This document shows, in pieces, positions 13,615-60,934 of a stretch of DNA of 64,000 nucleotides. Under the pieces are notes generated by a model. The model saw only the letters and a list, made by a program, of their open reading frames with translations, was not told where the DNA came from and made no database searches. How positions within the stretch are numbered: position 1 is the first letter of the stretch; each line of letters begins with the position of its first letter. The stretch is from Lunularia cruciata (taxonomy: Eukaryota > Streptophyta > Marchantiopsida > Lunulariales > Lunulariaceae), in assembly GCA_948567375.1 (NCBI GenBank), contig OX419756.1:71872333-71936332 (forward strand), read 5' to 3'. The translations under genes were made by a program, and so were the position numbers.

Positions 13615-13670
13615 AAGTGGAGGGCCTAGTGCAGCAAGGCAAGGGTCTTGCTACACTAAGCCCTCCACTT
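13615..13670. repeat. Perfect-looking hairpin, 24-bp arms
   Basis: Arms at 13615-13638 and 13647-13670 are inverted copies with two mismatches around an 8-base loop. The right arm is ordinary D-family gag sequence (compare about 34295-34320). The left arm is an inverted duplicate of it. Confidence 0.65.
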
Positions 13671-14058
13671 GCTGCATAAAATCTAGATTATCTACTCTGC
13701 CATTGGAAGCAAACATGGTGTGGTGCATTCTACTACACTATAGAAGAAGTAACAATTGTGAATGAGGTCTCTTTATTAAATCTAGATGTCATCACTCTCT
13801 CTTCCACCATGTTGAGCTTAACATGCTCAACCAAACTAAACACCACCACCAAATTAGGTGAGGTAACTTTTTACAATTTAGCATCATGTATTATATGTTG
13901 TAACTTTATGTCCAAGATCCCATACCAAAACTAGATCAATTAGGTCTCAATAACTCCTTGAGTGCAATTGATTAGCTATCTCATGCAAGTTTATGCCTCA
14001 TGTAGGATCTCTTTGGCCTTTCATTAGAATTCTTGCAAGCTGTTCAGCTTGTTAGTTT
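13645..14058 (-). pseudogene. D-family gag fragment, left part
   Basis: It is homologous to the gag of D at about 34290-34690, read on the minus strand, but full of substitutions and stops. The remainder continues at 25989, so A3 was inserted in this gag. The cut lies in the segment that reads CTTGTCAGTCCG in D. The flanking GTTT (14055-14058) and GTCC (25989-25992) are probably the decayed 4-bp target duplication. Confidence 0.75.
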
Positions 14059-25315: not shown

Positions 25316-25988
25316 TGTGAGCAAGCTTGTCTCTCACTCAAAATGAACCTCTAATGGCTATTATGGTAGCGCATCATGGACTAAGAAGGCAAGGAACCCC
25401 AACTCCATCATACTCCTCCAAGGATAACACTCCAAGACTCCAAAACCATTGCTCACTAGAGATAGTTGTAAATGAAATGATTATGACTACCTCATCACCC
25501 CTAGTTTATATACTTATGAAATAGTTACACACCAAAGTTACTAATTACTAGAGTAACTCAAGTTACTAGGCTAAATGTCTATTAAAGCCAAAAGTATAAA
25601 GGAATATCCATACTCATGGGAATATTCTTCTAAGCATGTGGTCTCATCTTGACACAATCACTAAGTCAAGGATTCCTCCTGGACTATCATTGGAATATAG
25701 AAGAATTTAAATAAAAAGGTTTGTGGGTCCAGGAGTTCTCAACACTTTTTTCAAAGCCAAATACCTAGGAATAATACCAAGTCAATACACTAGAATCCAA
25801 AATAGTGGTGTTCATCTTTTCCACTTCCTCTAAAGTAAAGTTCCCTCTATTTTAGATATGAGTAACTTAGCTAATCATGACTAATGTAGAACCATCCTCT
25901 ATCTCTATATAAATAATATCTCTCAAATACTTATAATACTAAACTAAATATCACAATAATATATACATGCACAGATGGATATTACAGT
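25316..25988 (-). repeat. A3 5' LTR
   Basis: It runs from TGTGAGC to ATATTACA on the plus strand, 673 bp. It differs from the 3' LTR at many sites and by small deletions, so the insertion is not recent. A decayed tRNA-Asp primer site lies at about 25294-25312. Confidence 0.88.
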
Positions 25989-26403
25989 CCGCACTCCTTG
26001 GTAGTTCTATCTCAAACACTAGAAGAACTCCACCATGGGGTTAAACTAGACTGATCCACCTCTTGTAGTGGGACTTCAACTTGTAGTGGTACCATTTCCA
26101 ATTAGTCCACCTTTAGATACACCAATGCTACTAGAGCTAGAACTTGGGGTCACTACCAATCTACCCCTAGAAACCAACCTTGAAGTGATGGAGGTGTAGT
26201 TTAGAGACTAATATTGTCTCCATAGCATTTCCAAGTGAGCTCTCTTGCACTCATGGTAATCATCCATTGGTAGAATTTCCAATTGGTGGAGCAACCACTT
26301 CCATGCCATGGAGGGTGTAAACAAAGTTGAGTTCCGTATCTAATATAGATCATACCAACTATTAAAATCTTGGATGAAGTCATCCAACTCAAAGGTACTC
26401 ATT
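25989..26403 (-). pseudogene. D-family gag fragment, right part
   Basis: It continues 13645-14058 and matches D at 34690-35115, including the region encoding MAWHGSGCSTNWKF-like sequence (MAWKGLFQHLEG in D). Stops are frequent. It ends abruptly against family B coding sequence at about 26401. Confidence 0.75.
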
Positions 26404-26606
26404 CTATCACTTCTTCACTATGGATTGCAACTAAGATCATGGGTAATTTATCTACATCTTTATTCTTTGACCCACTCTCTTCTAATATCTTAGGTAATTC
26501 ACCCACAACACTTGCACTCCTACTTCTCCTACTTTGGATGGGATATTTTTCTTTGTCTTACTCCAAAGTACATCTAACTCCTTTCTCACTAAATCTAATG
26601 TGAGAC
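26401..26606 (-). pseudogene. B6 coiled-coil gene, 3' fragment
   Basis: The minus-strand reading matches B3 at about 12060-12270. The gene continues at 48686, so A4 was inserted here. The target duplication is AGAC on both sides (26603-26606 and 48686-48689). Confidence 0.75.
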
Positions 26607-27263: not shown

Positions 27264-27267
27264 TGTC

Positions 27268-27370
27268 GTGCGTATATACATCGCTACACAACATACATTG
27301 CTGTCAACATCATACACTATAGAAACACAACTCACACATAAGTTATACATAGACTCTAAAGTGCCACAAT
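27268..27370 (-). repeat. D segment X, outer copy
   Basis: These 103 bp, from GTGCGTATATAC to GTGCCACAAT on the plus strand, are nearly identical to 27803-27905. They lie outside the 3' LTR core. On the minus strand X contains a TATA box (TGTATATAC) near its end, so it behaves like U3. Confidence 0.85.
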
Positions 27371-27796
27371 AATCAGATTGCTTACCACTCTCAACTCAAC
27401 TCAGATCAGTACTTGATATATCACTCTATAAATTGCTAACAACTGGGCATTGATTATAGTCAAGCCACACCCACTCAAGCATAGAGAATCCAGGTGACGC
27501 TCGCCGGCCTCTGTCCACCATGGCCAGGAACTCAAAGGCTCAACATCAAAGAAGTGAGCTCTCTGGAGCTCACTTCAAAACTATAACCCCTGGACTTGAG
27601 CTAGCTCTGAAACCCTAACGGTCCTGCTGACAAACGGTGCAAAGTGACGGTGGGCCCCACCGTGAAGTTAGTACCCCGAACACAAAAGCTAACCATCGGA
27701 AAGTAGTTGCTGAGAAATTGTTGAAATAACTCTAACTACTATCACTGGAACTCTAGTGTTCGAGCATCTAGATGCGGAACTACAAATGGCGTGACA
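27371..27796 (-). repeat. D 3' LTR core
   Basis: 426 bp match 36745-37195 in the same orientation. On the minus strand it starts TGTCACGCC and ends CAATCTGATTA. The predicted transcription start (25-30 bp after the TATA box of the inner X) falls just inside it, so it corresponds mainly to R and U5. Confidence 0.88.
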
Positions 27797-27802
27797 GCTG
27801 TA

Positions 27803-27905
27803 GTGCGTATATACATCGCTACACAACATACATCGCTGTCAACATCATACACTATAGAAACACAACTCACACATAAGTCATACATAGACTCTAAAGTGCC
27901 ACAAT
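27803..27905 (-). repeat. D segment X, inner copy
   Basis: It is a direct repeat of 27268-27370. On the minus strand it begins TTGTGGCACTTT right after the purine tract GGGGAGCAA, as the start of a 3' LTR should. It runs through a TATA box and joins the core by CTACAGC. Confidence 0.85.
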
Positions 27906-27920
27906 TGCTCCCCTAGCTGG
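27906..27920 (-). other. D polypurine tract
   Basis: The minus strand reads CTAGGGGAGCA just before the inner X. A purine-rich tract at this place primes plus-strand DNA synthesis in Ty3 elements. Confidence 0.6.
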
Positions 27921-28189
27921 CGGTTAGGTCCCTTTAACTCTAGATAGCCATCTACTCTAAGTATATGGTATACCCTTTAATGGGCAAAGATCAGGAGGCC
28001 GGGTGCTATGGAGACCCATTGTTAGTCGCTTGTCTGCAATCTATACCATATAAAGAATGAACTAGTTATAGGTCAAGTACATTTAGGACATAACCACTAT
28101 CCATGAGGAACCACCGTGAGGGGAGGAGTCATACATGCCATATGCCATCCTCTCAAACAGCTATCATTACTAACATAGTAGCAGCTCCA
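27921..28189 (-). other. D 3' untranslated region
   Basis: It lies between the end of pol and the polypurine tract. I see no frame or repeat in it. Confidence 0.5.
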
Positions 28190-28540
28190 CTAGAAGAGCC
28201 ACATAACATACACCTCAAGCATGCACGTACAAGTGCCAAGCTTGGGTTTATCAATGTTTGGAAGGTGACATGGCGCACAATTGGGCACATGATCCTTCCA
28301 AACAACACCATCATGTCCTTCTAACACAAGGACTCCAGATGGCAAAACCTCGCGCACTCTCAAGATAGTGCGGCCTGTAGAAGCATCAAGTGTCATTGGT
28401 GCTGTTTGCTGTAGATATACATAGTCGCCTGGATGAAATCTATGGATCAAGGGTCTATAATCTCCTCCTGGAATGGTAGCATAGCGTAGAGTATCTCTAT
28501 GCTGAGCAATTGCTAAGTTCTCAAAGGCCATCGACATCAC
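28190..28540 (-). pseudogene. D integrase C-terminal tail
   Basis: The 116-codon frame continues pol. It includes RFHPGDYVYLQQ, the usual post-core integrase strand, then GVLVLEGHDGVVWKDH and NCAPCHLPNID. There is no chromodomain signature. It would bind DNA or position the integrase. Confidence 0.75.
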
Positions 28541-29758
28541 TCTCTAAAAGATCTCTGCCCGCTGAGAACATGCACTCATCCATACATCGGGGTCATCCAA
28601 GTCCAAAACTATAGTAGCATCTTGACAAATGGCTGCAGGTAAATCAGGATCTCATCCATAGAGTAGAAAGTATGGAGAGAAGGATGCTAAGGAGGCTTGC
28701 CGGCTGAACCGATAGCCCATGGCCAACCAAGGTAATTGGAGATCCCAATCTCCCAAGTGGCCTCTCTGCAAACCATACTTTTGCAATCCTCTCTTCATCG
28801 TCTGAACCACTCTCTCTGCTAAGCCATCTGCCTCAGGGTGATCTCGGGAGGTAGTACGGTGATCAATCAAAGCCTTGTCACACAAGACCTGAAACTCTCC
28901 CAAGAACTCTGTACCCTAATCAATCAAAACCTTAGCTGGTGCACCAAAATGACTAAGAACTCGATCCAGGAATGAGTAAGCTGTCCCTTCACTAGACTTG
29001 TTAGGAAGTGCCACCAACTCAATCCACTTGGAGAAGTGCTCCACCATCACCAAAACATACCGATGATGTCTCACAGTTAGCGGTAAAGGTCCGGCAAAGT
29101 CCAAACTCCAACGGTAACCCAATCCCATGATAGGTAATGGGTGTAACTATGGCATAGGAGCATTGAATGATGCTCTAACTTGGTCACAAACCATACATCT
29201 GGCAACAAACTGCTGTACCTCGGTCTGCATACCGCACCACCAATAATGACTTTGGAGTAAGCTATACGTACGTTTTACTCCAAAATGTCCTACCTCCTCA
29301 TGAGTATGACGGACCAATTGTGGTCTCTGTGATGGAAGTGGTACTACTTGCACTCTACCATCCTCCCATACACGCAAAAGGTGTCTACCCTCCAATCTGA
29401 TCCGTCTAGCTTGCTGAAGAACACGGTCTCTCTCCTTGGCCCTAATTGTGCCACCCACAACACCAGTGCAAAGATAGTCCATCACTAAGACATCATCATG
29501 AATGTCTCGCTGAATTGTATCAATATCTTCACTCTTTGGATCTGTGACCTCAATAACTCCTCTTGTATACGCTGAGAGAGATAGCACCAAAGCCTCTACA
29601 AATATATAGAGAAAGGCCGATGCATGCCAACCTGGCACCATCTCCTCATCTGTCTCACCATGCCAACGTGCTCCGGTCTGATCCTGTTGGCTGGGACATG
29701 GGTTTCTACTCAACCCATCTGCATCACGGTTCACCACTCCAGGTCTATGAACAACCAT
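28541..29758 (-). pseudogene. D integrase
   Basis: It joins element DNA to the host chromosome. The zinc-binding HHCC domain is visible (HTHEEVGHFGVKR, then CMVCDQ, near 29200-29340). The catalytic core has the first Asp in WSLDFAGPLP (near 29090), the second in VLID followed by a stop and GTEF (near 28910), and the Glu in ADGLAERVVQTMKR (near 28820). All three catalytic residues are kept. Stops after NAPMP, VLID and LLYG break the frame. The stop in VLID*GTEF stands where Ty3 elements usually have Gln or Arg. Confidence 0.85.
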
Positions 29759-30060
29759 GAAATCATACTCCTGTAAAATCAGAGCCCATCATGCAAGCTT
29801 CCCTAAAAGCTTGTCGGACTCCATCAACCACTTCAGTGGCTGATGATCAGTGATAAGAGTGAAGGGGTTACCAAATAGATAACATCGGAAATGTGCTATT
29901 GCCCAAACTGCTGCCAAGCACTCTCCCTCATATGAACTATACTTCGCCTCCGCTGAATTATTGGAGCGACTAGCATAGGCCACCACAAACTCCTTCCCCT
30001 CATCATCATGCTGGGTGAGCACCGCTCCAAGCCCCAACATACTCCAATCAGTGTGAACTT
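29759..30060 (-). pseudogene. D RNase H
   Basis: It degrades the RNA of the RNA/DNA hybrid. Frame 30040-29789 has the first Asp in FQVHTDWSMLGLGAVL, the Glu in YSSYEGECLAAVWA and the next Asp in LITDHQPLKWL. The last motif follows in the next frame piece (VNRDADGLSR, 29730). The catalytic residues appear to be present. One stop follows KLA. Confidence 0.85.
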
Positions 30061-31180
30061 GAAATGGTCATCCCCTGATCGGTCTCTTCAAAATAGGAGT
30101 AGATGTCAACCTCTCCTTGAGCTCTACAAAAGCTCTCTCCTGCTCATCTCCCCAACACCACTCCTATGTAAGCTTGGTCAGCTTCATCAAGGCCTTGGCA
30201 ATGGCACTAAATCCTCTAACATAGCGGCAATAGAAGTTCGCCAACCCAAGGAATGCTCGCACTCTGCTCACATCCGTAGGCCAAGGAATACGTGCAATAG
30301 CCTCCACCTTGGTCTACTGAACACCAAGTCCTCCAGGGTAGATAATGTGACCCAATTACTCAACCTGCTCATGGAAGAACCTACACTTCCCAGGATGTAA
30401 TTTGAGTCCATGAGATCTCAACCTCTTAAACACCTCCAACAACTATCTCTCATGCTCCTCCATAATAGTGCTATAAACCAAAATGTCATCAGTATAGCAC
30501 CGAGCAAAATCCAATCTAGCTAGGATCCTATCCATGACCCTTTGGAACTCAGCAAGGGCATTCTTTAACCCAAATGGTAAGAACCTCCACTGATATAACA
30601 CATCCTTGCCGTGAGGATCAATAGCCCAAAATGTTGTCTTAGACTTATCCTCCTCTCTAATCGGCAACTAATGATATCCTGCTCAAAGATCCAAAGTACT
30701 GAAGATCTTTGCATGCCCAATTGCATCAAAAATCTCCTCCGATGTAGGCATGGCATACCAATCAGCCCTAGTCTACCGGTTGATAGGACGGTAATCTCCA
30801 CACATCCGCCTATTTGTATAGTTGCCATGCATATCCTTCTTGGCTGGCATCACTGTCGCTGATGCATACTCTCCATGTGAAATCTCCACCAAACTAGCCT
30901 CAAAAAGGTCACTACTTCGGCTCTAAATCAATGTCCTCTCCATATCACTATATCAATAAGGACGTCGGAAAATTGGTGTGTTGCTAGTCAGCTTAATCTG
31001 TATACTAGGTCCCTTCAGAGCACCCAAATCCTTCATACTGAAGGCAAAACAACTCGTGTGACTCCTCAAGAACCTCCAAACCCTCCGTCTTTCCTCTCTA
31101 GTAAGCTTGGGTCCAAGATCTGGCTCCCAAGTATCCTCTGTAATTGTAGTAGGAGTGGAAGACGTACTGACTGACTGCTA
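30061..31180 (-). pseudogene. D reverse transcriptase
   Basis: The N-terminal part reads ASATVMPAKKDMHGN and RRMCGDYRPINR (near 30790-30870). Palm motifs follow: FSTLDL, then stop-AGYH, then DPHGKDVLYQWRFLPFGLKN and the catalytic box YTDD (30485-30496; usually YIDD or YLDD, both Asp kept). The connection PGKCRFF, GLANFYCRYVRGF and AKALMKLT is also present. Stops occur after INR, LDL, GYH, EHER and KLT. In several of these the conserved residue is Arg, Gln or Trp. Confidence 0.88.
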
Positions 31181-31489
31181 CACTGGGCCCTTGGGAGCAA
31201 TAGTGTCATGCTCCTGACCACTAGAGGTCCCAACCTTTGTGTGAAAAACTCCCTCCACTCTGGTTGCAAGCTCCACACGTCCTCTAGCTGCATCCCATGT
31301 GGACCAAGGGTGTAATCCAAGTAGCCCACGCTCACCTGGATGGACTCCAAGTAGACCACTCTCCCTAGTAGCTACTGGATGTGTCCCAAGGATACCATGT
31401 CCACTTGGTCCATCGCCCCCAGCATGTGCTTGAATTGTCTCGATAGGCACAGGGCTCACAAGTGTCCGAGTGGTGATGCCTATCAAGCA
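31181..31489 (-). pseudogene. D linker between methyltransferase and RT
   Basis: The frame stays open from 31660 to 31178. After the methyltransferase C-terminus it holds three imperfect repeats of the type LGTHP, LLGVHP, LLGLHP (near 31300-31400) and a Ser/Thr/Pro-rich segment. It is probably a spacer in the polyprotein. I recognise no domain. Confidence 0.55.
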
Positions 31490-32520
31490 CATCCTATGCT
31501 GCTCTGCCAAGCCAAGGCTCACAATCCAAGTCAAACACTTTAGGTCCATAGCCTGACCTAACACCTGACGCATGGATGCCTCTGACATTGCTGGAACAGC
31601 GCTAATACCGGTGTGAAAACCCATCGCCCGCCTTCTCTCATCAACATTGGGCTCCACCAACTGCTGTAACTATGAGTCCCAAACAAGTCCAAGTCCTCCC
31701 TCTCAAAAAGCATGAGAGCCTGGGAAACTCATGAGTGTGGGAAATGCAGCTCTAGGCTGTCCAACTAGGTTCACCACCGCCATAGGTGACCTATCAGCCA
31801 CTACTATTGTTTGAGACTGACGCCCAACATCCAAGATATCATCAACAAGAATGTAAGCCAGTCGTTGAGTCCCATCATAAGCATGCTGTTGAACCTCTCT
31901 GGGTAAGAGGTTTGTCCACCAAAGACAAAGACAATGAGCCTGTGATCACACTCTGGCTGCATCTAACAATACAGCAGGTCCCATCCAAGAATGGACCTGA
32001 TGTGTACTGGCCACCACTCTGGTGCGAGAATCACCCATCAAAGGAACGTTCTCTAAAAGGTAAGCTAGAGAAACAGACTGATGAACATGCAGATGTCGTA
32101 GTATTCGTAACATCTCCCAAAACACACCAAAATGAGGATCCTGAAGACCCAATCCTCTACCAGCACGTGTATGTCCCTGACATGGCCATCCAAAAATCAC
32201 CAAGTGAATAGGCCATGTCTCTCTAGGTCATGCGCCCCCAGTAAGGAAATGTCTCCTGGTAGGGCCTTCTGGTAACCTATGACTGCTGACATCGGTAACA
32301 ACTCCAGATATCGATAGGCCAAGTGTGCCATATGATGTAGAGAGACTCGCCTAGCAGTCTCATCCCTCTCTACATACAAGTACCTCTGTACTCGGATACC
32401 CGCATGTAACACCGCAGCTAGTCCGGTGCTGATCCCACCAAACAACTCCAATAGGCATATCCCCTCTACTAGATACTGCCAAGCAATGAGTGTGGTATCC
32501 AGAGGTGTCAAAGCAATTAC
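31490..32520 (-). pseudogene. C5-cytosine DNA methyltransferase domain of D pol
   Basis: The enzyme class moves a methyl group from S-adenosylmethionine to carbon 5 of cytosine in DNA. Motif I is LELFGGISTGL (32419-32454), followed by GIRVQRYLYVERDETA with the acidic motif II residue. Motif IV is FGWPCQGHTRAGRGLGLQDP with the catalytic Cys (PCQ, 32177-32185), then FWEMLRIL. Motif VI is LLENVP (32045-32053). Motif VIII is SQAHCLCLWWTNLLP (near 31905-31943). Motifs IX and X are ERRRAMGF (from 31639) and RQVLGQAMDLKCLTWIV. The order I-IV-VI-VIII-X is the canonical one, unlike the permuted DRM enzymes. N- and C-halves are in different frames (shift near 32200), and one stop lies at 31945. It sits in frame with RT and integrase. 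Confidence 0.88.
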
Positions 32521-32905
32521 CTCTAGAAGCTCATCCTCACACTCATCTCCTGATGGTACGAAGGCTCCACTCCAAGCTTGCTGCACCAATTGATCTGCAT
32601 ACTGCTGCAATGCCTCCTTTGAACTCCACAATGGAACATCCAAGGTGGATGGAACAATCCCACTCGTACTCCAAAGCCGAGTGATCTCCTCTGGTACTGG
32701 AGTATCCTCTACATGGGCGTTCCCCTCCAACAAGTCACCAGGCCAAGTAACTGCACCACTAAAAGCTAAAATTGATGCTACTATGGTCCTGGACTGTAGT
32801 GAGCCAAGACTGCTACTACTGAAGCGTACTGGTAGGTGACATACCCATCCCTCACCAGACTGCCAACCAGGTCTATAAGAAGCTATTTCCTCCCAATAGT
32901 CAATG
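32521..32905 (-). pseudogene. D linker between protease and methyltransferase
   Basis: It is part of the open frame 32967-32197. It is acidic and Ser/Pro-rich (EDTPVPEEITRLW, GDECEDELLEVIALTPLD) and leads into motif I. I see no separate domain such as PWWP or ADD. The frame is one base off the rest of pol, and a second shift near 32200 restores it. Confidence 0.6.
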
Positions 32906-33199
32906 CTGAAACCCATGAGGTATAACACTGCTCCCCCAACTAGCACATCATATGATTCAGCTATCATCGCAATAGCCTGAGCTCTCTACCACCGAGCTAT
33001 CAGTCGGATGACCAGGCTGAACCTAGACAACAAGCTCTCCACGTGTGATGTACTGTGTCGAACCGCCACCTACAGATGTTTGGATCTGAAATGGACACCT
33101 CTCCACATCGGTCTTCCTTAACTCCAGACCGACAATTGCAGCCTTCCCCAACATAAGGGGCTGCACACCAGAGTCTAACAAGACTCTTTGTGGTGTTTA
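32906..33199 (-). pseudogene. D aspartic protease
   Basis: This retropepsin would cut the polyprotein. The active site is VLLDSGVQPLMLG, with DSG at 33167-33175. The second conserved motif is YDVLVGGAVLYLMGF near 32908-32952, in a different frame. A stop precedes the active site at 33197. Spacing of about 75 residues between the two motifs fits the family. Confidence 0.78.
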
Positions 33200-33915
33200 G
33201 ACCTTCCCTGAAGGTCCCACCAAATGGAAAATCCCCCTCTGGTTATCCAATAGGACAACACCAGGTGTGAACCGCGCGCTCTCAAAGGCCGGTCTAGCTG
33301 GCAACTCCTCCAGTCTAGCCGCTACTGCCTGCCATAAACCACTGGTTGCTGAATGGATCCCATGCTCCTCAACCAAGTCAGCTCCACTACCAACCACCTC
33401 TGCTCTAGTAGTAGGAACTGCACCATCCCTACTCTCACACAATGTGGTAGCCAACGAGAACATTGGGGTTGGGTCAACTCCCAATGTAAACATATCACTC
33501 GCTGAAAACAAAGGATGCCGCATAATCAGCTGAGCCGCCCCCAACATCATGCTAGACTCAGTCTCTATAGTAGCAAGTGGCTGACTGGCAGGTAGTCCAT
33601 CATGTCTTCCATCACCACCTACCACACCTACACTGGGATGTCTAGGAACCATGGATGTCGTCTGCAATGCCTCAGATAGCGTGAAAGACTAGGAAAGTAT
33701 GACCTATCTCCCAACCTCTCCTCTCTGTGGGTCCAACTCCACTGATGCTCCTCTAGGCTCTAGAGCACGTACTACACTCCTAGTCACTGCTGCAGATGCA
33801 TCCACCTGTGCTGCTCTGCACATGAAGTCCAAAGCATCTCTATCACTAGCATATGAGGTGGAAGCCTCAGCACCCGAATCTGATCTCCTCTGAGCAATCC
33901 CCATACTAGCCAATC
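33200..33915 (-). pseudogene. D pol N-terminal spacer
   Basis: Frames 33913-33704 and 33667-33197 are in the pol frame and run from behind the zinc knuckles to the protease. They are Ala/Val/Ser-rich, for example RDALDFMCRAAQVDASAAV and RAEVVGSGADLVEEHG. Gag is in the neighbouring frame, and the overlap (34056-33784 against 33913-33704) would allow a -1 shift. Whether this is programmed or a mutation cannot be told from one copy. Confidence 0.55.
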
Positions 33916-35454
33916 TCTACTCCAATTGCTCAATCCAAGTAGCCATAGCTGTGTCAAAAGTAAGGCAAGTACTACACCCCTACTAGGTGTAGATCCTCTA
34001 CCACCACCTCTACCACCTCGTCCTCCATGAACTGGAGCTCCTCTACTACCTGCCATAGCAGCCCTACCACTCCGTAACTCCGGGTGTAGGTCAAAACACT
34101 TGTCACTAGTGTGACCAAATCTGTGGCAGTGCTCACACTGCCTCTATGTTGGCTGTGATGCACCAGAGGTATCAGGTCCGCTGCCTTGAGTACACTCTCT
34201 CCGATGGTGAGGTCCACCACAAGTCCAACAAGCAACACTACCACTCACTGGCTGTTGTTGACCCAAAAATGAGGGTAAGAGTCTAACTCCACTAGGCCCT
34301 CCACTCGCTCCATAGGGTCTGGGCTGTCCACCTTGTCCTCAAAAACCAATTGGGCGTGGTGCACTCTGCTGCACTCTAGAAGAAGTCATAGCCGTGGATG
34401 AGGTCTTCCTACCAAATCCAAATGTCACCACTCTCTCCTCCACCATGTTGAGCTCAATATGCTCAGCCAAACCAAAGACCACTGCCAAAGTAGGCAAAGT
34501 AGCCTATAACAACGTAGCATCATGAACTCTATGTTGCAACTCCTTGTCTAGTATCCCATACCAAAACTGGATTGTCTGGGCCTCAGTAACTCCTTGAGTG
34601 AAACTAATCAGCCGCCTCATGCAAGTGTATGCCTCATGTAGGCTCTTTCCAGCCTTCCGTTGGAACTCCTGCAAGCTCCTCACCTTGTCAGTCCGTACTC
34701 CCTAGTAGTTTTTCCTCAAACATAAGAAGAACTCCACCATGGGGTTAAACCCCGGTACCACACCACCTCCTACAGCGGTACCTCCAATCGTAGTAGCACT
34801 ATCTCCAGCTAGTGCACGTCCACTAGCTCCACCAACACTACTCGAGCTAGAACTCGTGGGTACAGCCAATCTACTCTTGGCCACCGAGCTTGAAGTGATG
34901 GAGACATAGTGTGGAGACCAATACTGTCTCCATAACTCAATCTCCTCCAAATAAGCTCTCCTAAACTCATGGTAGTCATCCATCAATGGACCCTCCAAGT
35001 GCTGAAACAACCCCTTCCATGCCATGAAGGGTGTGAACAAAGTTGGGTTCTGCATCTGTTGCAGATCACACCAACTATTGAACTCCTGGATGAAGTCATC
35101 CAACTCAATGGTACCCATTGTACCAGAGTAACGCCTAGGGCCTTTGGAGGCCCCATAAATCTTGTCCATGTCCCACAACAACGGTGCGGACACACCAAGT
35201 GCACTCTCAATTGAATCAGCTCTTGTGTTGAACTCCAACTCAGAGTCAATCTCCTCCCTCATTGGGACTTGAGATACAAGCTGATACCAAGCACCACTCC
35301 GAGTAAACCCACTCCGTATTGCAGTGCTAACTCCTCTGGAATCTCCAAAGAACTCCGTCGTGATAAAGTAACCACAACAGCAAACCCAAACCACCAACTG
35401 CAACCGCAAGTCGCAACCGCGAGTGCCAACACCACCACGTGCCAACACCACCAA
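33916..35454 (-). pseudogene. D gag with two zinc knuckles
   Basis: Gag packages the element RNA. The capsid-like region is open at 35454-34702 and includes ELDDFIQEFNSWCDLQQM and ATPFMAWKGLFQHLEG-like sequence, then DYHEFRRAYLEEIELW. After one stop it continues with SLQEFQRKAGKSLHEAYTCM. Two knuckles follow: CWTCGGPHHRREC (34192-34230) and CEHCHRFGHTSDKC (34096-34137), of type CX2CX3HX4C and CX2CX4HX4C. A Gly/Arg-rich tail (GGRGGRGGGRG) ends it. The 35454 start is only the first ATG in the open frame; a later Met near MREEIDSEL (35262) is more likely. Confidence 0.82.
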
Positions 35455-36744
35455 GTGCCAACCCTAACTAAGCACCACCCACTAATGTAACTCTAACCGA
35501 GATAACTACACTAGGGGAAAGGGCAACCTATAACGTGCCATCATAACACGCACTCTCACGATCTACAGGTCATCACTTCTTGTCTCACCAAAGAGAAACA
35601 AAGGTATTCTGATTGGTCATCACTCCAGCCTCACCACCAAGAGCACACCAGAGCACCAACACTCAAAAGTCAGGGCACCTCACACAAACGTGGTGCACAA
35701 ACAGGAAGTAGAGAATGGAGGGGGTCCAATCACAAGAAATCTAAACAAAAACCCTCCATCTCATAAAACAACACGGGACTGACTCTGCAACCATTTGGCA
35801 TTTGACATAAAAGGAGTTCGTATCTAAGTCCTAAGCAACCAAGATCACCAAGAATGGGATCAAATTGCCTCTCCTAGCCAAAGCTACATGTGTATAGATA
35901 ACAGTGGCATAGTCAGTATGACAACAAGTGAGTTAGTATGACAACAAGTGAGGGTGGACCAGTTTACTAGGGCACCAGTCTAGGAACAAGAGATCTAGGG
36001 GTCAAATCTTGTTGTGCACAATCTAGCAAGAAAGGCAGATTTTGCAAACCAATGACCAAGATCTACTCTTAACTTGCTAGCCTCACGCTAGCAAGCTGGC
36101 TTGCTGGCCCTTCTAGACCTTCGTAGCCCACATCCCTATGCCTCGAAGCCTCTAAATGCCCAAATGAGGCCTTTCTTGTTGCCACTTCGAACCTCCTCCA
36201 AAATTGGCAAAACTTCTCCAAATATGCAAAAGTTCTCCAAACTAGCAAAACTCCTCCAAATCTGGCCAAACAGCAAAAACTCCTCCAATTTTGGCCAAAA
36301 TCTAACGTAAATCCCAACCAAAATCTAACGTAAAATCTGACGTAAACCCTAAAGATGGCTGTCCGCCAAATCCCCCGCTAACTTTTCACTCGAGCCAAAT
36401 TTACAACACACGTTTTTCCAAATCACAAATTCATGAGAAGAGCTTCCCAACTCTACCTTCAATTTGACTTTCTGAGCCCAACTCGTAGCAAATTGGTCCT
36501 GCCTTCACCTCCTGAGCTCAAATTCATGACCACTGCTCAAAATTTGCTCCTTCTTTGCTCAAAATTTGGCCAAGGCTTCCGCACACTGTCCGCCTAACTG
36601 CCAAATCTGCATCAATCGATTGAGCTTCTACACACTAGGGAAACACTAAACTTGAATCAAGCTACCAACAATCTACCGAGCTTGGAGATACCACCAACAC
36701 TCACCGTTCCTACACCCGATTTCCCCTTGACTTCACTTCTCTGA
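35455..36744 (-). other. D 5' untranslated leader
   Basis: 1.3 kb lie between the LTR core and gag without a convincing frame. Plus-strand 36140-36300 has short repeats of the type AAAACTCCTCCAAA. Right after the core the minus strand reads TCAGAGAAG, which resembles only the second half of the tRNA-Met site (TGGTATCAGAGC). The primer site is therefore uncertain. Confidence 0.55.
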
Positions 36745-37195
36745 TGTAATCAGATTGCTTACCACTCTCAACTCAACTCAACTCAGATCAGTACTTGATC
36801 TGTCACTCTATAAACTGCCAACAATTGGGCACTGATTACAGTCAAGCCACACCCACTCAAGCATAGAGAATCCAGGTGACGCTCGCCGACCTCTGTCCAC
36901 CATAGCCAGGAACTCGAAGGCTCAACATCAGAGAAATGAGCTCTCTGGAGCTCACTTCAAAGCTATACCCCCTGGACTTGAGCTAGCTTTGAAACCCTAA
37001 TGGTCCCACTGACGGCACACTCAACGGTGCAAACGGTGCAAAGTGATGGTGGGCCCCACCGTGAAGTCAATACCCCGAACACAAAATCTAACCGTCGGAA
37101 AGTAGTCGCTGAGAAACTACTGAAATAACTCTAACTACTATCACTAGAACTCTAGTGTCTAAGCATCTAGATGCGGAACTACAAATGGCGTGATA
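36745..37195 (-). repeat. D 5' LTR core
   Basis: 451 bp run from TGTAATCAG to CGTGATA on the plus strand and match 27371-27796. Segment X, which should adjoin it, is missing at this end; the A4 LTR resumes directly after TCCT. Confidence 0.88.
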
Positions 37196-53640: not shown

Positions 53641-53659
53641 GTGTATGATATCACAAAGA

Positions 53660-54530
53660 GATTTTTTCACCAAAAGACAAAGACAATGAGCCCATGATCT
53701 AACTCTAGTTGCATCTAGTAAAATGATAGGTCCAATCCAAGACTAATCTGATGTGTACTCTATCATCCATATGCAAGAATTGCCTAACAAAAGAGATGTT
53801 CTCCAAAATGTGCTAGAGAAATTACTTGATGAACTTGGAAATGTTGTAATATATGTAGCATATATGACATAATATATGCCAGATCAAGGATCTTGTAGAA
53901 TTTTCCCTTGGCAAGACTAAACCTGATGTTTAAGTCCCACAACTCATGTGCAAGAATCACCCATCAAAGGGATTTTCCCCAAAATATGTGCAAGAGAAAC
54001 TACTTGATGAACCTTGAGATGTCGTTACATATGTAGCATACATATCATAATATTAGTATGCCTTTGTGTCTTTTGGACACAATAAATACCTCTCCGCACA
54101 TGGATGTCAAATGCCTATCCATATGTTATCCAATTCTCTATTGCCAAATGCCTATCGCAAATCCAATGGTTGATAGTAAGAGTTTTGTTTCTAGCTAGTC
54201 TATTGCATGTCATCCATGAAATAAAGAACTCTATATGTCTGACTGTAATACTAGAATTTGATTACTGCATGCCAACACCCATTCATCCATCCATCCATCT
54301 ATCTATCAAAACATCACAATCTAATCACCACTAAGGACCATATTCTAGTGCCATTAAGAATCACACCAAAATCCAAGTTTATTACATCTATAAATATGCC
54401 AAAGCAAGGATCTTGTAAACCTTGACCTTGGTAAGTATTGGTATCCCCTTGATATGGCTATCTTGAAGTCACCAATTGAATAGTACCATTTCTCTCCAAA
54501 TCATGCATCCAAAGCAAGGAAATTGTAAGG
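53660..54530 (-). pseudogene. D-family methyltransferase fragment, left part
   Basis: It is homologous to D at about 31905-32255 (motifs IV to VIII), strongly decayed. A stretch corresponding to D 32030-32110 occurs twice (53790-53890 and 53935-54050). About 350 bp without a match, including an ATCC-repeat run at 54283-54305, are inserted. It continues at 60684 beyond element E. Confidence 0.7.
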
Positions 54531-54786: not shown

Positions 54787-56159
54787 GAGGTGAGAAAGAG
54801 GTTCCTATGTGGCATCATGAAGGAGGTACCCTTTCCAAAGGACCTTGTACTCTATATGGTGGCAGCATCCTTGTTGGATGTGGCACCGTGCAAGGACACT
54901 ATCAACTTTATACTCCTCATGATCATTGATAAGGATAGGGGGAGGAGGAGGTTGCACTTGAGAGGAGAAAGAAGAGGGGTTAGGAACAAAGGGTTTCAAC
55001 TTGGAAACATGAAAGACATGATGGATGCGCATATGACAAGGTAAGGCAAGTTGATAAGCAATAGGAGAGATAATTTGGGTGACATCAAAAGGTCCTATCC
55101 AATTAGGGGCAAGTTTACAAACTTGGGTATCAAGTGGGAGGGTTAGATTACTAGAGGATAACATAACTTTATCACCAACTTCAAAGGTGAGATCACGACA
55201 ATGATGGTCCGCATATTGTTTTTGACAATTTTGAGCACCAAGGAGGTGAGATTTGGCTTGTTGGAGAGATTTGGCTTGTTGGAGAGATTCGGACTTGGTG
55301 GTCAAGAAGGTTGAAGTATAGAGAACTTGAGACGGAGGAGGAGCAAGAGAATCTAAGACAAGCGGATCTTGGCCAAAATTGAGAAAGAAAGGAGAGAATC
55401 CGATGCTTGCTTGTTTAGAATTAATGTATGCAAACTCCGTAGCTGCAAGACATTGATCCCAATTGGTATGGTGAATGTTGACAAAGGCACAAAGCATATC
55501 TTCCAAGGTGCAATTTGGATGTTTGGTTTTTCCATCAGTTTGAGGATGATAGGTTGTGGACAAAGCAAGCTTGGTACCAAGTAGTTGGAAGAGTGCTTGC
55601 CAAAACTTTCTAGTGAAGTAAGGATCACGGTTAGAGATGAGTACACATGGCATCCCATGATGTTTGAAGACATTATCAAAGTAGAGTTGCGCCAATGTTG
55701 GAGCATCCACATTATCAACCGTTGGTGCAAATGGATTTGCTAACTAAGCTTATCCACAAACATCACAATTGTTGTGTGACCTTGTTGTGTCTTGGGTAAG
55801 GAGGTGATGAGATCTAAGCTCACATGTTCCCAATGAGTAGCTAGAATGGGAAGTGGCTGAAGGAGTCCACTCGGCTTTTGGTTACTGGCCTTGTTATGTT
55901 GAAAACTCTCACATGATCGGACAAAGTCCCAAACATCTCGTGTCATGTTGGGCCACCACCATTGTCATTGGAGGGTGCCCAAGGTCTTGTCCACTCCCAT
56001 ATGACCAGCTATTGGTAAATCATGGGCTTCTTGAAGGCACACAAGTCGAAGATCACCTTTGGCTAGAATATAGATCTGGTCCACATGGAATAGAAGGCCT
56101 TCCTTGAAGGAGAAGGTGTTGTACTCCTTGTTGCATGCTATCAGACAACTATGTACCAT
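54787..56159 (-). pseudogene. E integrase with chromodomain
   Basis: Zinc domain: HDLPIAGHMGVDKTLGTL (two His) and SCESFQHNKA, where the second Cys is lost. Core: HVSLDLITSLPK (first Asp), LISNRDPYFTRKFWQ (second Asp) and QTDGKTKHPN, where the catalytic Glu is Lys. Later GDKVMLSSSNL, GPFDVTQII and HHVFHVSKLKPF. The chromodomain is at about 54787-54927 (EEYKVDSVLARC, then EYKVLWKGYLLHDAT with a stop in place of Trp). It would target histone-marked chromatin. A frameshift lies near 55735. Confidence 0.88.
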
Positions 56160-56273
56160 ATGGAAGAAGGGATTTTATTGTAGAGCTGATTAAAACTTGT
56201 TATGGACCTTGGGGTCAATTCACACCGTTGTAGTTGCCGCCATGATGAGAGGAAGAGCCTTCAAATCAGGTCG

Positions 56274-56720
56274 TCATGATAGAGCATCAGGGATGACGTG
56301 GAACCGACCTGGTTTGTACTCAAGTTTGATGTCAAACAATTGGAGTTGCTCTTCCCATCGATGATGTCCACTCTTCATGTGCTCCAAGTGTAGGGTTTGC
56401 AACAATGGCTTGTGATCAATTTGCATGATCACTTGGTTCCCCAAGAGATAATGCCTCCATATCTTGGTGGCATATACCATTGCAAGTTGTTCATGATCTT
56501 GAGTAGAGTAATTTCTTTCAGCTATATTTAGTCGGTGAGACACAAAGGCAATGAGATATAGTCTATTTGGGAATTCTTGTTGCAACATAGCTCCAATTGC
56601 AAAGTTAGAAGCATCAAAATCAACCGCACAAGGTAGTGGGGGATCATATGGTTGAAGAATGGGTCTTGAAGACACCATATGCTTTAAATTTTGGAATGCT
56701 TCTTCATGCTTGGTGGTCCA
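56274..56720 (-). pseudogene. E RNase H
   Basis: Frame 56678-56274: CAVDFDASNFAIGAML (first Asp), YSTQDHEQLAMVYATKIWR (the usual Glu position is decayed), QIDHKPLLQTLH and FHVIPDALS (final Asp). The first motifs and the tail fit Ty3 RNase H. Confidence 0.85.
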
Positions 56721-57560
56721 CTAGAAGCTTGAGTTCTTTCCTAAGAGGTCAATCAATAGTGCAGCCACATGAGCATAATAGTGGATGAACCGTCGGTAAA
56801 AGCTGGCCAATCCATTGAATGCCCGTACTTCTGTAGCATCCTTCGGGGTAGGCCAATCAGTAATGGTCTTGATCTTCTCTTCTTCCATCTTGATCCCCTC
56901 TGATGAGATCTTATGACCCAAGAAGGTAACCTCCTTCTGCCAAAAGGCACACTTTGACTTCTTGCAGTAAAATTTCCATTGTTATAGTCGTCTTAGGACT
57001 TCTCGCACATGATTCATGTGTTCTACCTTTGTCTTGCTATAGATTAAGATATCATCCAAGAACACCACCAATTACAACCAATCCAATAGTCCATCCAACA
57101 CTCAATGCATCTGATCCATGAAGGTTGTTGGAGCATTAGTGAGTCCAAAAGGTAGAACTCTCCACTCAAAATGCCCATACCTTGTGTGAAAGGCAGTCTT
57201 TTGCACATCCTCTCTATCAATAGAAATTTGCCAATAGCCGCTACAAAGATCCAACTTGGAAAAGTAGCATGCTCCACTTAGTTGATCAAGCAAGTCATCT
57301 ATCCAAAGCAAGGGATATGCATTCTTCACAGTTTGATTATTGAGCCCATGATAATCAATACAAAAACAAAGTCCTCTATCCTTCTTTGGAACAAATAGTA
57401 CTGTTGCTCCTCAATGAGAGGTACTATGTCATATGAAGTCCTTCTCCAACAACTCTATAAGTGTTGTTTGCAACTCCTCCAACTCCTTTGTTGAGGGCCG
57501 ATAGATCGGTCTACTCATTGGAGTACTTCCTGGCAATAATTGATCTTGAAGGGCATACCT
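56721..57560 (-). pseudogene. E reverse transcriptase
   Basis: The N-part has [21 protein letters not shown] and [20 protein letters not shown]. The palm has [33 protein letters not shown] and the catalytic box FLDDILIYSK (near 57042-57066). The connection has VTFLGHKISSEGIK and FNGLASFYRRFIHYY. Stops lie near 57440, 57100, 57060 and 56975. Confidence 0.88.
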
Positions 57561-57838
57561 CGACCAGAGGGTAATCCCTTTGGCAGATCATCCAGAAACA
57601 CGTCCATAAACTTCTTAACTATCCAATCAACCATTGCTTGATGAGGCTCTTAGCCCTCCGTAGATTGTTCTTGTGCAATTGGCTTGATCCACATCGCAAA
57701 TACAGACTTATCTTCCTCCAAAGCTTGCTCTATGGCTGCTTTACTAACAAACTTCCCTTCTAGGGATTCATCTCTCTTCCAAGCTTGCTCCCTGGTTTCC
57801 TTCTTGGCAAACTTCCCATCTTGGGACTCATCTCCCTT
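57561..57838 (-). pseudogene. E linker between protease and RT
   Basis: Decayed polyprotein linker. The segment near 57700-57840 is partly duplicated: two AAACTTCCCATCTTGGGACT-type units lie at 57803-57830 and 57866-57893, with a weaker one at 57750. Confidence 0.5.
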
Positions 57839-58240
57839 CTAGGTTTGCTCTGTGACTACCATCTTGACAAACTTCCCATCTTGGGACTGACTATTCTTAG
57901 GTGTCTTACTTAGAGGTGCCAGACAACCTAATTGGAAATTCCTAACTTGGTGTTGTACTTGAATTTGGCATCGGGTCCAATCAAATTGAACCTTATGATG
58001 TTCAAGCCAAGGCAGACTCATAATGATATCATAGTGTAGAGGTGCCACTACAAACCTCATACACTCTAAATACTCCTTCCCAATCTTGAAGGTAACAAGA
58101 TGCGAGGTGCGGAATGCAAAACCCTTTCTATTATCCACCATCATCAAACTACTTCTAATCATTGGCTTGATAGGAATACCCAATTCCTTTGCTACTTGCA
58201 TAGACATGCAATTCTTTGAATTTCCAGAATCAACCAAAAT
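57839..58240 (-). pseudogene. E aspartic protease
   Basis: 132-codon frame. Active site MVDSGNSKNCMSMQVAKELG (DSG near the start), then VTFKIGKEYLECMRFVV and DIIMSLPWLEHHKVQFDW, the second conserved protease motif (usually ILGMPWL). Length fits retropepsins. Confidence 0.83.
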
Positions 58241-58299
58241 TCTACAGCTTCAATTAGATATCATACCTTGCAAGTGAAGCAAACTTGCATAGGTCGAGC

Positions 58300-59256
58300 C
58301 TTCATTCCCATTGGAACTAATTAAGCTCCCAATAGGTGGCTCAAAATCTCCTATTGGGATTCCTTGTTTCCTTGATCATTCCGCTCCACAACCTCCACCT
58401 GGGCAACTTGTTGAGGTCATCTATTCTTGAGTGGATATTCATCAATGCAATGCCCAAATTGGCGACAATAAAAACAACCACAATTTTGTTACAGTTTCTC
58501 TCTATCCATCGTGCTAAGTAGTCTTTGTTGAATAGCATCAATCTCCATTGGTTTTGGCTCCTCCACTTGTGTGTAGTGTATTGGCAGGCTCTGTGGAGGT
58601 CAAGATCAAGACCAAGTTGTTGCCACCAGTCAATCAAAATGTTTGGCCAACCGCATGGCTTCCTCCAAGTGTTGAGGCTCTTGCATGGTTACCTCTAATT
58701 TGGTTCTTGCCTTCAAGCCCCTCACACATCGATCCAGAGCTTCACCTTCCAATATATTTGGAATTTGCATGATGGTGTTTTGGAATTGCGTGATGTAGCT
58801 TCTTACAAAGCCAATCTATTTCAACTCTGCCAACTTATCCCATGCAGCTCGTGTGGCATTTGTAGCTTGGAATTGACTAATTGTTGCACTCTTGAATTCT
58901 GCCCATGTCAAGATTTGTGCAACAATTTGTCATTCAGCTTGCTCTACTTGAAATCTCCACCATAGCTTTGCTACTCCATCCAATTGGCCAGAAGCCAAGA
59001 GAATTTGTTTTTGCTCAACTTGTAGATTGGTAGCTTCAAAATAACATTCACAATCAAACACAAAATTCTCCATTGCACCCAGAAGATTCTTGCCTTCAAA
59101 TACCTTGGGTTTAGGGAATCTGATCCAATCTTCTTCTTCTTAAATTGGTACTCTCTCCACTTGCTCTTGTTGTCGAAGATCTTGTTCATCCAAAAATTGA
59201 GTAAGGTGCTAGATTTGTTGCTGCATAGCAAGGATAACATCGGGTATTGCCGCCAT
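58300..59256 (-). pseudogene. E gag
   Basis: It begins MAAIPDVILAMQQQ at 59256. Capsid: KLWWRFQVEQAE, AEFKSATISQFQ, RSYITQFQNTIMQIPNI and EALDRCVRGLKARTKLEV, typical of chromovirus Gag. The knuckle CFYCRQFGHCIDEY (58430-58480) has Tyr in place of its last Cys. Multiple stops. Confidence 0.83.
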
Positions 59257-60610: not shown

Positions 60611-60683
60611 AGGCTAATTTGGCTTATTCTCTACTTTGTTAGCCTTACTAACTATGTCGCTAAACTCCATACTATACATAAGG

Positions 60684-60934
60684 TCTTTTGGTAGCCTTTG
60701 ACTATTGACATTGGTAATAGCTCAAGATACCAATTTTCCAATTGCTTCACATGATGTTTAGAGACTTTTCTTGTAGTCTCATCCATTGCTACATATAAGT
60801 ACCTCTAAACTTGTATGTCTGCCTACAAGACTACAACTAGTCCAATGTTGATCCCACTAAATAAATCTTATAGGCATACTCCTTCCATTGGATATGTATG
60901 GTATCCAAAGGTATGGTATGGTATCCAAAGGTAT
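60684..60934 (-). pseudogene. D-family methyltransferase fragment, right part
   Basis: It continues 53660-54530 and matches D at 32262-32500, the motif I region. Decayed. The right end has a small tandem repeat (GGTATGGTATCCAAAG) and then meets the LTR of A5. Confidence 0.72.

What the first reader, a model, noticed from the sequence alone, without database searches (positions are those of the whole stretch)
31490..32520. A Ty3-type retrotransposon whose pol includes a C5-cytosine DNA methyltransferase
Seen: motifs I (LELFGGISTGL), II, IV (PCQ with catalytic Cys), VI (ENV), VIII (WWTNLLP), IX and X in canonical order, between protease (DSG at 33167) and RT (YTDD at 30485). Protease start, the methyltransferase C-half, RT, RNase H and integrase share one reading frame; only the N-half is shifted, and a second shift restores it. 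That argues for an original polyprotein domain rather than a chance neighbour. Known: cytosine methyltransferases in retrotransposons have, as I recall, been reported in dinoflagellates and charophyte algae; I do not know of a description for this kind of plant element. Inference: the element could have methylated its own or host DNA.
Basis: partly seen in the sequence, partly recalled or inferred. Interest (0 to 1): 0.92.

Follow-up and report, generated by a model that had tools for sequence, protein, structure and literature searches.

The report
Jumping gene carrying a DNA methyltransferase
A plant retrotransposon present in more than a thousand copies carries its own DNA-methylating enzyme, of the kind plants use to silence such elements, and the copies show signs that natural selection kept that enzyme while the element spread.

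Summary
The finding is real. Window 27370-37194 (minus strand) is a decayed LTR/Ty3 element with gag, protease, a DNMT3-type C5-cytosine methyltransferase, RT, RNase H, integrase and a PHD-finger remnant. It belongs to a recently active family in the same 566-Mb genome. Of 20 copies sampled through the methyltransferase, 20 have RT directly downstream and 18 protease directly upstream. Of 20 sampled independently through RT-integrase, 20 have the methyltransferase directly upstream. The domain shows in-frame purifying selection.

One refinement: in this family the methyltransferase ends the gag-protease ORF and is separated from pol, in the same frame, by UAG CARYYA, the plant-virus readthrough signal; the junction has 1552 exact matches genome-wide.

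A DNMT3-carrying Gypsy element is known from the alga Klebsormidium (PMC5890265). New, as far as my searches show: bryophyte relatives (Marchantia, Calypogeia, Sphagnum), the Gag-side position before a readthrough stop, the PHD finger, and trees indicating one old acquisition shared with charophyte and Volvox elements, with one relocation of the domain.

The window copy is dead. Methylating activity and its target are inferred, not shown.

The parts
36745..37194 (-). 5' LTR of the element
   Evidence: 88.1% identical over 447 columns to 27370-27794; matches the LTR start of copy L096
34066..35169 (-). gag with CCHC zinc knuckles, broken
   Evidence: 57% identity to residues 1-357 of Marchantia P0003
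32993..33973 (-). end of gag, linker and protease start (LLDSG), main frame
   Evidence: 46% identity to P0003 389-700
32212..32979 (-). protease end, linker and methyltransferase N-half (motifs I-III), in another frame
   Evidence: 59% identity to P0003 705-963
31208..32209 (-). methyltransferase C-part (motifs IV PCQ, VI ENV, VIII, IX, X) and ORF1 tail, main frame
   Evidence: 56% identity to P0003 965-1271; PF00145 over cut-off at 31946-32227
31172..31180 (-). ORF1 stop TAG followed by CAGTCA, a match to the UAG CARYYA readthrough consensus; pol continues in the same frame
   Evidence: same junction in other copies
28805..31144 (-). pol: reverse transcriptase (YTDD), RNase H, integrase; one frame, interrupted by stops
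   Evidence: 73% identity over 753 residues to Calypogeia fissa P0104 (31036-28805) and 63% to P0106 from 31144
28076..28804 (-). integrase C-terminus and degraded PHD finger (about 28226-28076)
   Evidence: alignment to P0106, whose PHD finger is residues 978-1032
27370..27796 (-). 3' LTR
53656..54053 (-). degraded methyltransferase remnant of a related element
   Evidence: 73% nucleotide identity to 31905-32113; 76% to copy L096 over 114 bases
54374..54523 (-). short methyltransferase-like remnant near the previous one
   Evidence: tblastn with P0005, 44% identity over 50 residues, E 4e-7
60679..60894 (-). methyltransferase motif I-III remnant of a related element
   Evidence: tblastn with P0003, 58% identity over 72 residues, E 1e-17

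Best explanation
The window holds a dead copy of an autonomous Ty3/Gypsy LTR retrotransposon whose lineage acquired a DNMT3-type de novo cytosine methyltransferase long ago and kept it. ORF1 encodes Gag, protease and the methyltransferase; ORF2, in the same frame after UAG CARYYA, encodes RT, RNase H, integrase and a PHD finger. Shown: identity and DNMT3 type of the domain, constant position, conserved catalytic motifs in the family, conserved readthrough-type junction, high copy number, recent insertions, in-frame constraint. Inferred from that anatomy: most ribosomes stop at the UAG, so the methyltransferase is made in Gag-like amounts and is present in the virus-like particle, whereas Pol is made in small amounts by readthrough; the enzyme then methylates the element's own double-stranded cDNA, or the freshly integrated copy, so that the copy arrives already marked like resident heterochromatic DNA. 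Benefit (least certain): evading a response to unmethylated incoming DNA, or lowering damage to the host while the PHD-finger integrase chooses the chromatin.
For: Homology and fold. DNMT3A is the best PDB match of the family profile (3.7e-26), then DNMT3B; a plant DRM follows at 6.3e-13 and M.HaeIII at 5.2e-9. Position: 20 of 20 copies sampled by the domain have RT directly downstream and 18 of 20 protease upstream; 20 of 20 sampled by RT-integrase have the domain directly upstream. Junction: TAG in 18 of 18 readable copies plus the window, CARYYA in 17 of 18 plus the window, pol in the same frame in all; 20 of 20 TAG CARYYA in the second sample; 1552 exact pattern matches, 0 in the reversed control. 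The peptide between UAG and the first in-frame AUG is conserved in a distant relative. Constraint: 19 sequences, non-synonymous:synonymous 16:24 for shared against 44:20 for single-copy changes (OR 0.30, p 0.0047), no such deficit in the other two frames. Recent activity: LTR pairs 94.6-99.1% identical in 11 of 20 stretches. Catalytic PCQ and ENV in 40 of 40 copies. Published precedent for activity: two SymbioDIRS-Dnmt3 domains methylate CG in yeast.
Against: No activity, expression, particle or methylome data for this family. The nearest published relative, the K. nitens Gypsy Dnmt3, showed no activity in yeast (called inconclusive by its authors). The AHRxR motif is lost in 8 of 20 and 3 of 20 sampled copies, as in the window. 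Constraint tests on RNase H, integrase and the PHD part show no signal, and 21 region-frame tests were made. Two rows inside the DNMT clade show little or no such domain where one is expected (P0183, P0164). Readthrough is read from a motif, not measured; an AUG lies 144 bases after the stop.
Confidence: 0.6

Rival explanations
1. Chance neighbour: a methyltransferase pseudogene or an assembly join lying beside a Ty3 element.
For: In the window alone the frames are broken and the domain spans two frames.
Against: 40 of 40 sampled copies have it in the same place; 1552 junction matches; relatives in other plants and algae with the domains in one reading frame.
Confidence: 0.01
2. Recent, independent capture of this plant's own DNMT3 gene.
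For: The host has DNMT3-type genes (L081, L084), and independent capture is what the 2018 paper proposed for K. nitens.
Against: Retrotransposon domains form one clade (33 rows, 99*) apart from the host genes, and RT/RNase H/integrase of DNMT-bearing elements form one clade. Caveats: quick trees, few host genes, K. nitens methyltransferase itself not retrieved.
Confidence: 0.06
3. The domain is kept for a non-catalytic job (binding DNA or RNA, particle structure).
For: Several copies lack AHRxR; no activity of the K. nitens domain in yeast.
Against: PCQ and ENV in 40 of 40 copies; invariant columns across 19 diverse relatives include the catalytic Cys and Glu and the AH..R of motif VIII.
Confidence: 0.12
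4. The enzyme acts in trans, on host promoters or on competing elements, rather than on its own cDNA.
For: DNMT3 enzymes act de novo; Gag-side expression would give much enzyme; the 2018 paper discusses effects on the host methylome.
Against: Selection on each copy's own coding sequence is easier to explain by an effect in cis or inside the particle (inference).
Confidence: 0.2
5. Pol is made by internal initiation at the AUG 144 bases after the stop, or from a spliced RNA, and not by UAG readthrough.
For: The Calypogeia record starts at that methionine; Marchantia gene models join the two parts (P0007).
Against: UAG CARYYA kept in 37 of 38 readable copies plus the window; same frame; the peptide upstream of that AUG is conserved in a relative. 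Conservation among young copies is not independent evidence.
Confidence: 0.25

Closest known systems
KnitGypsy-Dnmt3 of the alga Klebsormidium nitens (PMC5890265; sections 10-11 and passages read)
   Same: LTR Gypsy element with a linear, DNMT3-type methyltransferase in its coding region; multi-copy; domain under purifying selection. Three K. nitens RT proteins fall inside the same RT clade.
   Different: There the domain is described in the Pol ORF and the repeats as DIRS-like; here it ends ORF1 before UAG CARYYA, with ordinary direct LTRs, plus a PHD finger. There it is described as an independent acquisition in the K. nitens lineage; the trees here suggest shared ancestry. The K. nitens methyltransferase sequence itself was not retrieved.
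SymbioDIRS-Dnmt3 of dinoflagellates (PMC5890265)
   Same: DNMT3 in a retrotransposon polyprotein; two domain orders coexist, as in the clade here.
   Different: DIRS elements with tyrosine recombinase, not Ty3 with DDE integrase; activity on CG shown in yeast.
Unnamed Marchantia polymorpha, Calypogeia fissa and Sphagnum proteins
   Same: Gag-protease-methyltransferase and RT-integrase proteins collinear with the window, 57-73% identical by region.
   Different: Annotated in the database as hypothetical or unnamed proteins; no description as an element found in my paper searches.
Plant host DNMT3 and DRM (PMC6453930, passages)
   Same: Same catalytic fold and motifs.
   Different: Host genes with introns outside any element; DRM has a rearranged motif order (L082); separate clades in the tree.

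Membership tests
LTR/Ty3-Gypsy retrotransposon | Direct LTRs | tested here: met
   27370-27794 and 36747-37193, 88.1%; LTR pairs in 11 of 20 other stretches
LTR/Ty3-Gypsy retrotransposon | Order protease - RT - RNase H - integrase | tested here: met
Ty3 chromovirus branch | Chromodomain after integrase | tested here: inconclusive
   No chromodomain seen; the relatives' PHD finger lies there instead; the last window piece was not scanned against Pfam
C5-cytosine methyltransferase, DNMT3 type | Motifs I-X in linear order with PCQ Cys and ENV Glu | tested here: met
   Window; PCQ and ENV in 40 of 40 copies
C5-cytosine methyltransferase, DNMT3 type | Closest to DNMT3 among known families | tested here: met
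C5-cytosine methyltransferase, DNMT3 type | De novo methylation activity | not testable with these tools
   No wet-lab data
KnitGypsy-Dnmt3 kind | DNMT3 domain inside the Gypsy coding region in many copies | tested here: met
KnitGypsy-Dnmt3 kind | Domain in the Pol ORF; repeats arranged as in DIRS (PMC5890265, Fig. 4 legend) | tested here: not met
   Domain ends ORF1 before TAG; direct LTRs
KnitGypsy-Dnmt3 kind | Common descent of the methyltransferase with the K. nitens one | tested here: inconclusive
   K. nitens RT rows lie inside the clade but carry no methyltransferase in those partial proteins
Type I (UAG CARYYA) stop-codon readthrough | UAG followed by CARYYA, downstream ORF in frame | tested here: met
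   motif definition in PMC3542737
Type I (UAG CARYYA) stop-codon readthrough | Measured readthrough product | not testable with these tools
   needs reporter or proteomics

The most novel reading that the evidence does not exclude
One capture of a DNMT3 by a Ty3 element, before the green-plant groups sampled here separated or spread later by transfer between them, founded a lineage that is still active in bryophytes and algae. It treats the methyltransferase as a particle component: in the bryophyte branch the enzyme sits on the Gag side of a UAG CARYYA readthrough stop, so it is made at structural-protein level and marks the element's own cDNA before or at integration, while a PHD-finger integrase reads chromatin. 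An element thus carries both a writer and a probable reader of silencing marks.
Probability: 0.45. Interest if true: 0.85.

Novelty: new variant of a known kind. Interest (0 to 1): 0.72.

Why it matters
Cytosine methylation is the standard weapon of plants against transposons. An element that has kept its own de novo methyltransferase through repeated transposition, in more than a thousand copies, makes the question of why a parasite would methylate DNA testable in a land-plant group that has model species: Marchantia carries relatives. It also bears on how many times retrotransposons have captured such enzymes (the published view is independent captures) and gives a prediction about dose, since the enzyme lies before the readthrough stop. 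Annotators should know that many bryophyte 'DNA methylase' proteins are parts of retrotransposons.

Tried and rejected
Rejected: chance neighbour or single-copy insertion; a bacterial-type enzyme; a rearranged DRM-type enzyme (motif order is linear); a recent capture of the host's own DNMT3. My first reading of the LTR ends (a 537-base LTR beginning TGTGGCAC) was wrong and was replaced after comparison with another copy.

Led nowhere: IMG/VR scans with P0073 and P0104 found nothing; the scan with alignment A1 gave 315 relatives, 80 kept, and the nine I used are phage-type enzymes serving as outgroup only. A search of the own genome with P0005 did not complete, nor were the patterns with an open stop codon or open hexamer, so how often the stop is replaced by a sense codon genome-wide is not known.

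Results against or beside my reading: N-half piece alone has no Pfam match and only E 0.37 to DNMT3A. RNase H, integrase and PHD parts show no constraint signal; with majority-based counting integrase had none either. In one search the DNMT-before-RT rows branch both inside and at the base, they form a weakly supported group (87), so the direction of the domain's move is open. 68 of 148 rows are RT-first proteins whose upstream part is unseen. Rows dropped: L107 and L108; P0100, P0101, P0173 and others (56 of 148 rows kept); rows with weak RT or RNase H. The six DNMT-free rows lie outside the clade, but they are few, and many rows were found by searching with the methyltransferase.

Full report
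What is in the window. On the minus strand, 27370-37194 is an LTR retrotransposon: LTRs at 36745-37194 and 27370-27796 (88.1% identical), gag, protease, methyltransferase, RT, RNase H, integrase and a PHD-finger remnant. Marchantia P0003 (1278 residues) aligns from residue 1 to 1271 in four pieces over 35169-31208 at 46-59% identity, and Calypogeia fissa P0104 (753 residues) aligns in one frame over 31036-28805 at 73%. The methyltransferase piece 31946-32227 passes the Pfam cut-off for PF00145. This copy is dead: frameshifts, many stops, and cysteines in place of the motif VIII arginines. Of the 13 stops met in the P0104 alignment, 9 stand where the relative has Gln (TAG, five) or Arg (TGA, four), as C-to-T decay would give.

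It is a family, and the domain is part of it. PF00145 gave 123 scored matches there, of 2161 first-look candidates, many in long open frames; a few are host genes. I took 20 of these places at even steps down the list: 20 of 20 have RT directly downstream, 18 of 20 have protease directly upstream, and in two (L090, L091) the 5' part has been replaced by another element. In 11 of 20 both LTRs are inside the stretch, 94.6-99.1% identical over 330-449 bases. To avoid choosing by the domain I then searched with RT-integrase (60 scored of 63487 candidates) and took every third: 20 of 20 have the methyltransferase directly upstream, with PCQ and ENV in 20 of 20 and AHRxR in 17 of 20. In the first sample PCQ and ENV are in 20 of 20, AHRxR in 12 of 20. 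Both lists favour young, well-kept copies. Intact-looking copies exist.

The junction. In 18 of 18 readable copies of the first sample, and in the window, the methyltransferase ORF ends with TAG and pol follows in the same frame; the next six bases fit CARYYA in 17 of 18 and in the window (two copies were not readable there). In the second sample it is 20 of 20. The junction pattern with TAG CARYYA has 1552 exact matches in the genome and none in the reversed control. UAG CARYYA is the readthrough motif of tobamoviruses and other plant viruses (PMC3542737, passage). The peptide between this stop and the first in-frame AUG, 144 bases on, is conserved in relative P0106, which argues that it is translated. 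Several relatives have protease, methyltransferase and RT in one uninterrupted frame (for example P0022, P0038), others as two proteins. So the enzyme most likely counts as a Gag-side product here. This step is inference from sequence.

Selection. Among 18 copies and the window, changes shared by two or more sequences, which passed through transposition, are compared with changes seen in one sequence only, mostly decay. In the methyltransferase frame the non-synonymous:synonymous counts are 16:24 shared and 44:20 single (OR 0.30, p 0.0047); in the other two frames OR is 1.50 and 2.36, not significant. RT gives 3:13 and 23:11 (OR 0.11, p 0.002). Gag (OR 0.47, p 0.10) and protease (0.55, p 0.13) lean the same way; RNase H, integrase and the PHD part show nothing. 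That is 21 region-frame tests. Mean pairwise Ka/Ks, with approximate borders, is 0.41 for the methyltransferase, 0.36 for RT and 0.37 for gag. Within the methyltransferase region C/T differences between copies are 4.6% in CG, 5.9% in CHG and 2.2% in CHH, against transversions of 0.6-1.0%: the copies themselves look heavily methylated, by whatever enzyme.

Relatives and history. Homologues come from Marchantia, Calypogeia, Sphagnum, Closterium and Volvox, and from many unnamed metagenome contigs. Two orders occur: methyltransferase before RT, as here, or between RNase H and integrase. In the RT/RNase H/integrase tree of 148 rows all methyltransferase-bearing rows fall in one clade (131 rows, 99*), the six rows with protease and RT but no methyltransferase lie outside, and the second order is one clade of 46 rows (44 of them with the domain so placed, 100*). 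A 56-row tree under a mixture model agrees (41 rows, 99*; 15 rows, 100*) and holds three K. nitens RT rows inside. The methyltransferase tree gives one retrotransposon clade (33 rows, 99*) apart from two host DNMT3 genes, the host DRM and DNMT3A. This suggests one acquisition and one relocation. The 2018 paper describes an independent acquisition in the K. nitens lineage; my K. nitens rows are partial proteins without the methyltransferase, so the conflict is not settled. Transfer between hosts is not excluded.

What is known. Read: PMC5890265 in parts, passages of PMC12344493, PMC6453930, PMC9516144, PMC8566409, PMC5784723. The 2018 paper established Dnmt3 in K. nitens Gypsy and dinoflagellate DIRS elements, showed CG methylation in yeast for two SymbioDIRS domains and none (inconclusive) for the K. 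nitens one. A 2025 paper still cites streptophytes and dinoflagellates only by that work, and a Marchantia methylome paper lists five methyltransferases, MET, CMT and DRM, in the passages seen. My ten searches listed no bryophyte element of this kind.

Mechanism, with certainty marked. Shown: domain, type, position, junction motif, copy number, constraint. Probable: catalytic activity. Plausible: Gag-level dose, packaging, methylation of its own cDNA. Open: what the element gains. Scores follow: the identity of the thing is close to certain, the mechanism about 0.6, and the kind is known from algae, so I file it as a new variant of a known kind.

Noticed in passing
27264-27370 and 27799-27905: A 107-base piece of the element's own 3' untranslated end stands on both sides of the 3' LTR (97.2% identical); in copy L096 it precedes the 3' LTR only. 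Tandem or recombinant end, unexplained.
   Followed up: partly
54805-59139: Another Ty3-like element on the minus strand with RT, RNase H and integrase frames, about 33% identical to P0104 in RT and without a methyltransferase hit between.
   Followed up: no
13638-14056 and 25985-26409: Two gag remnants related to the methyltransferase family, about 75% identical to it, abutting other repeats at 14056/14059 and 25985.
   Followed up: no
L081, L084, L082 (host genome): Host DNMT3-type genes (two loci) and a DRM with rearranged motif order lie outside any element seen.
   Followed up: partly
P0041, P0053, P0073 and other relatives: A PHD finger follows the integrase in many relatives, 44 of 102 proteins; a possible chromatin reader joined to a methylation writer.
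   Followed up: partly
27370-37194 against the rest of the window: The element is richer in G+C (0.476) and less CpG-depleted (0.378) than the flanks (0.174 and 0.145), in keeping with a younger insertion.
   Followed up: no
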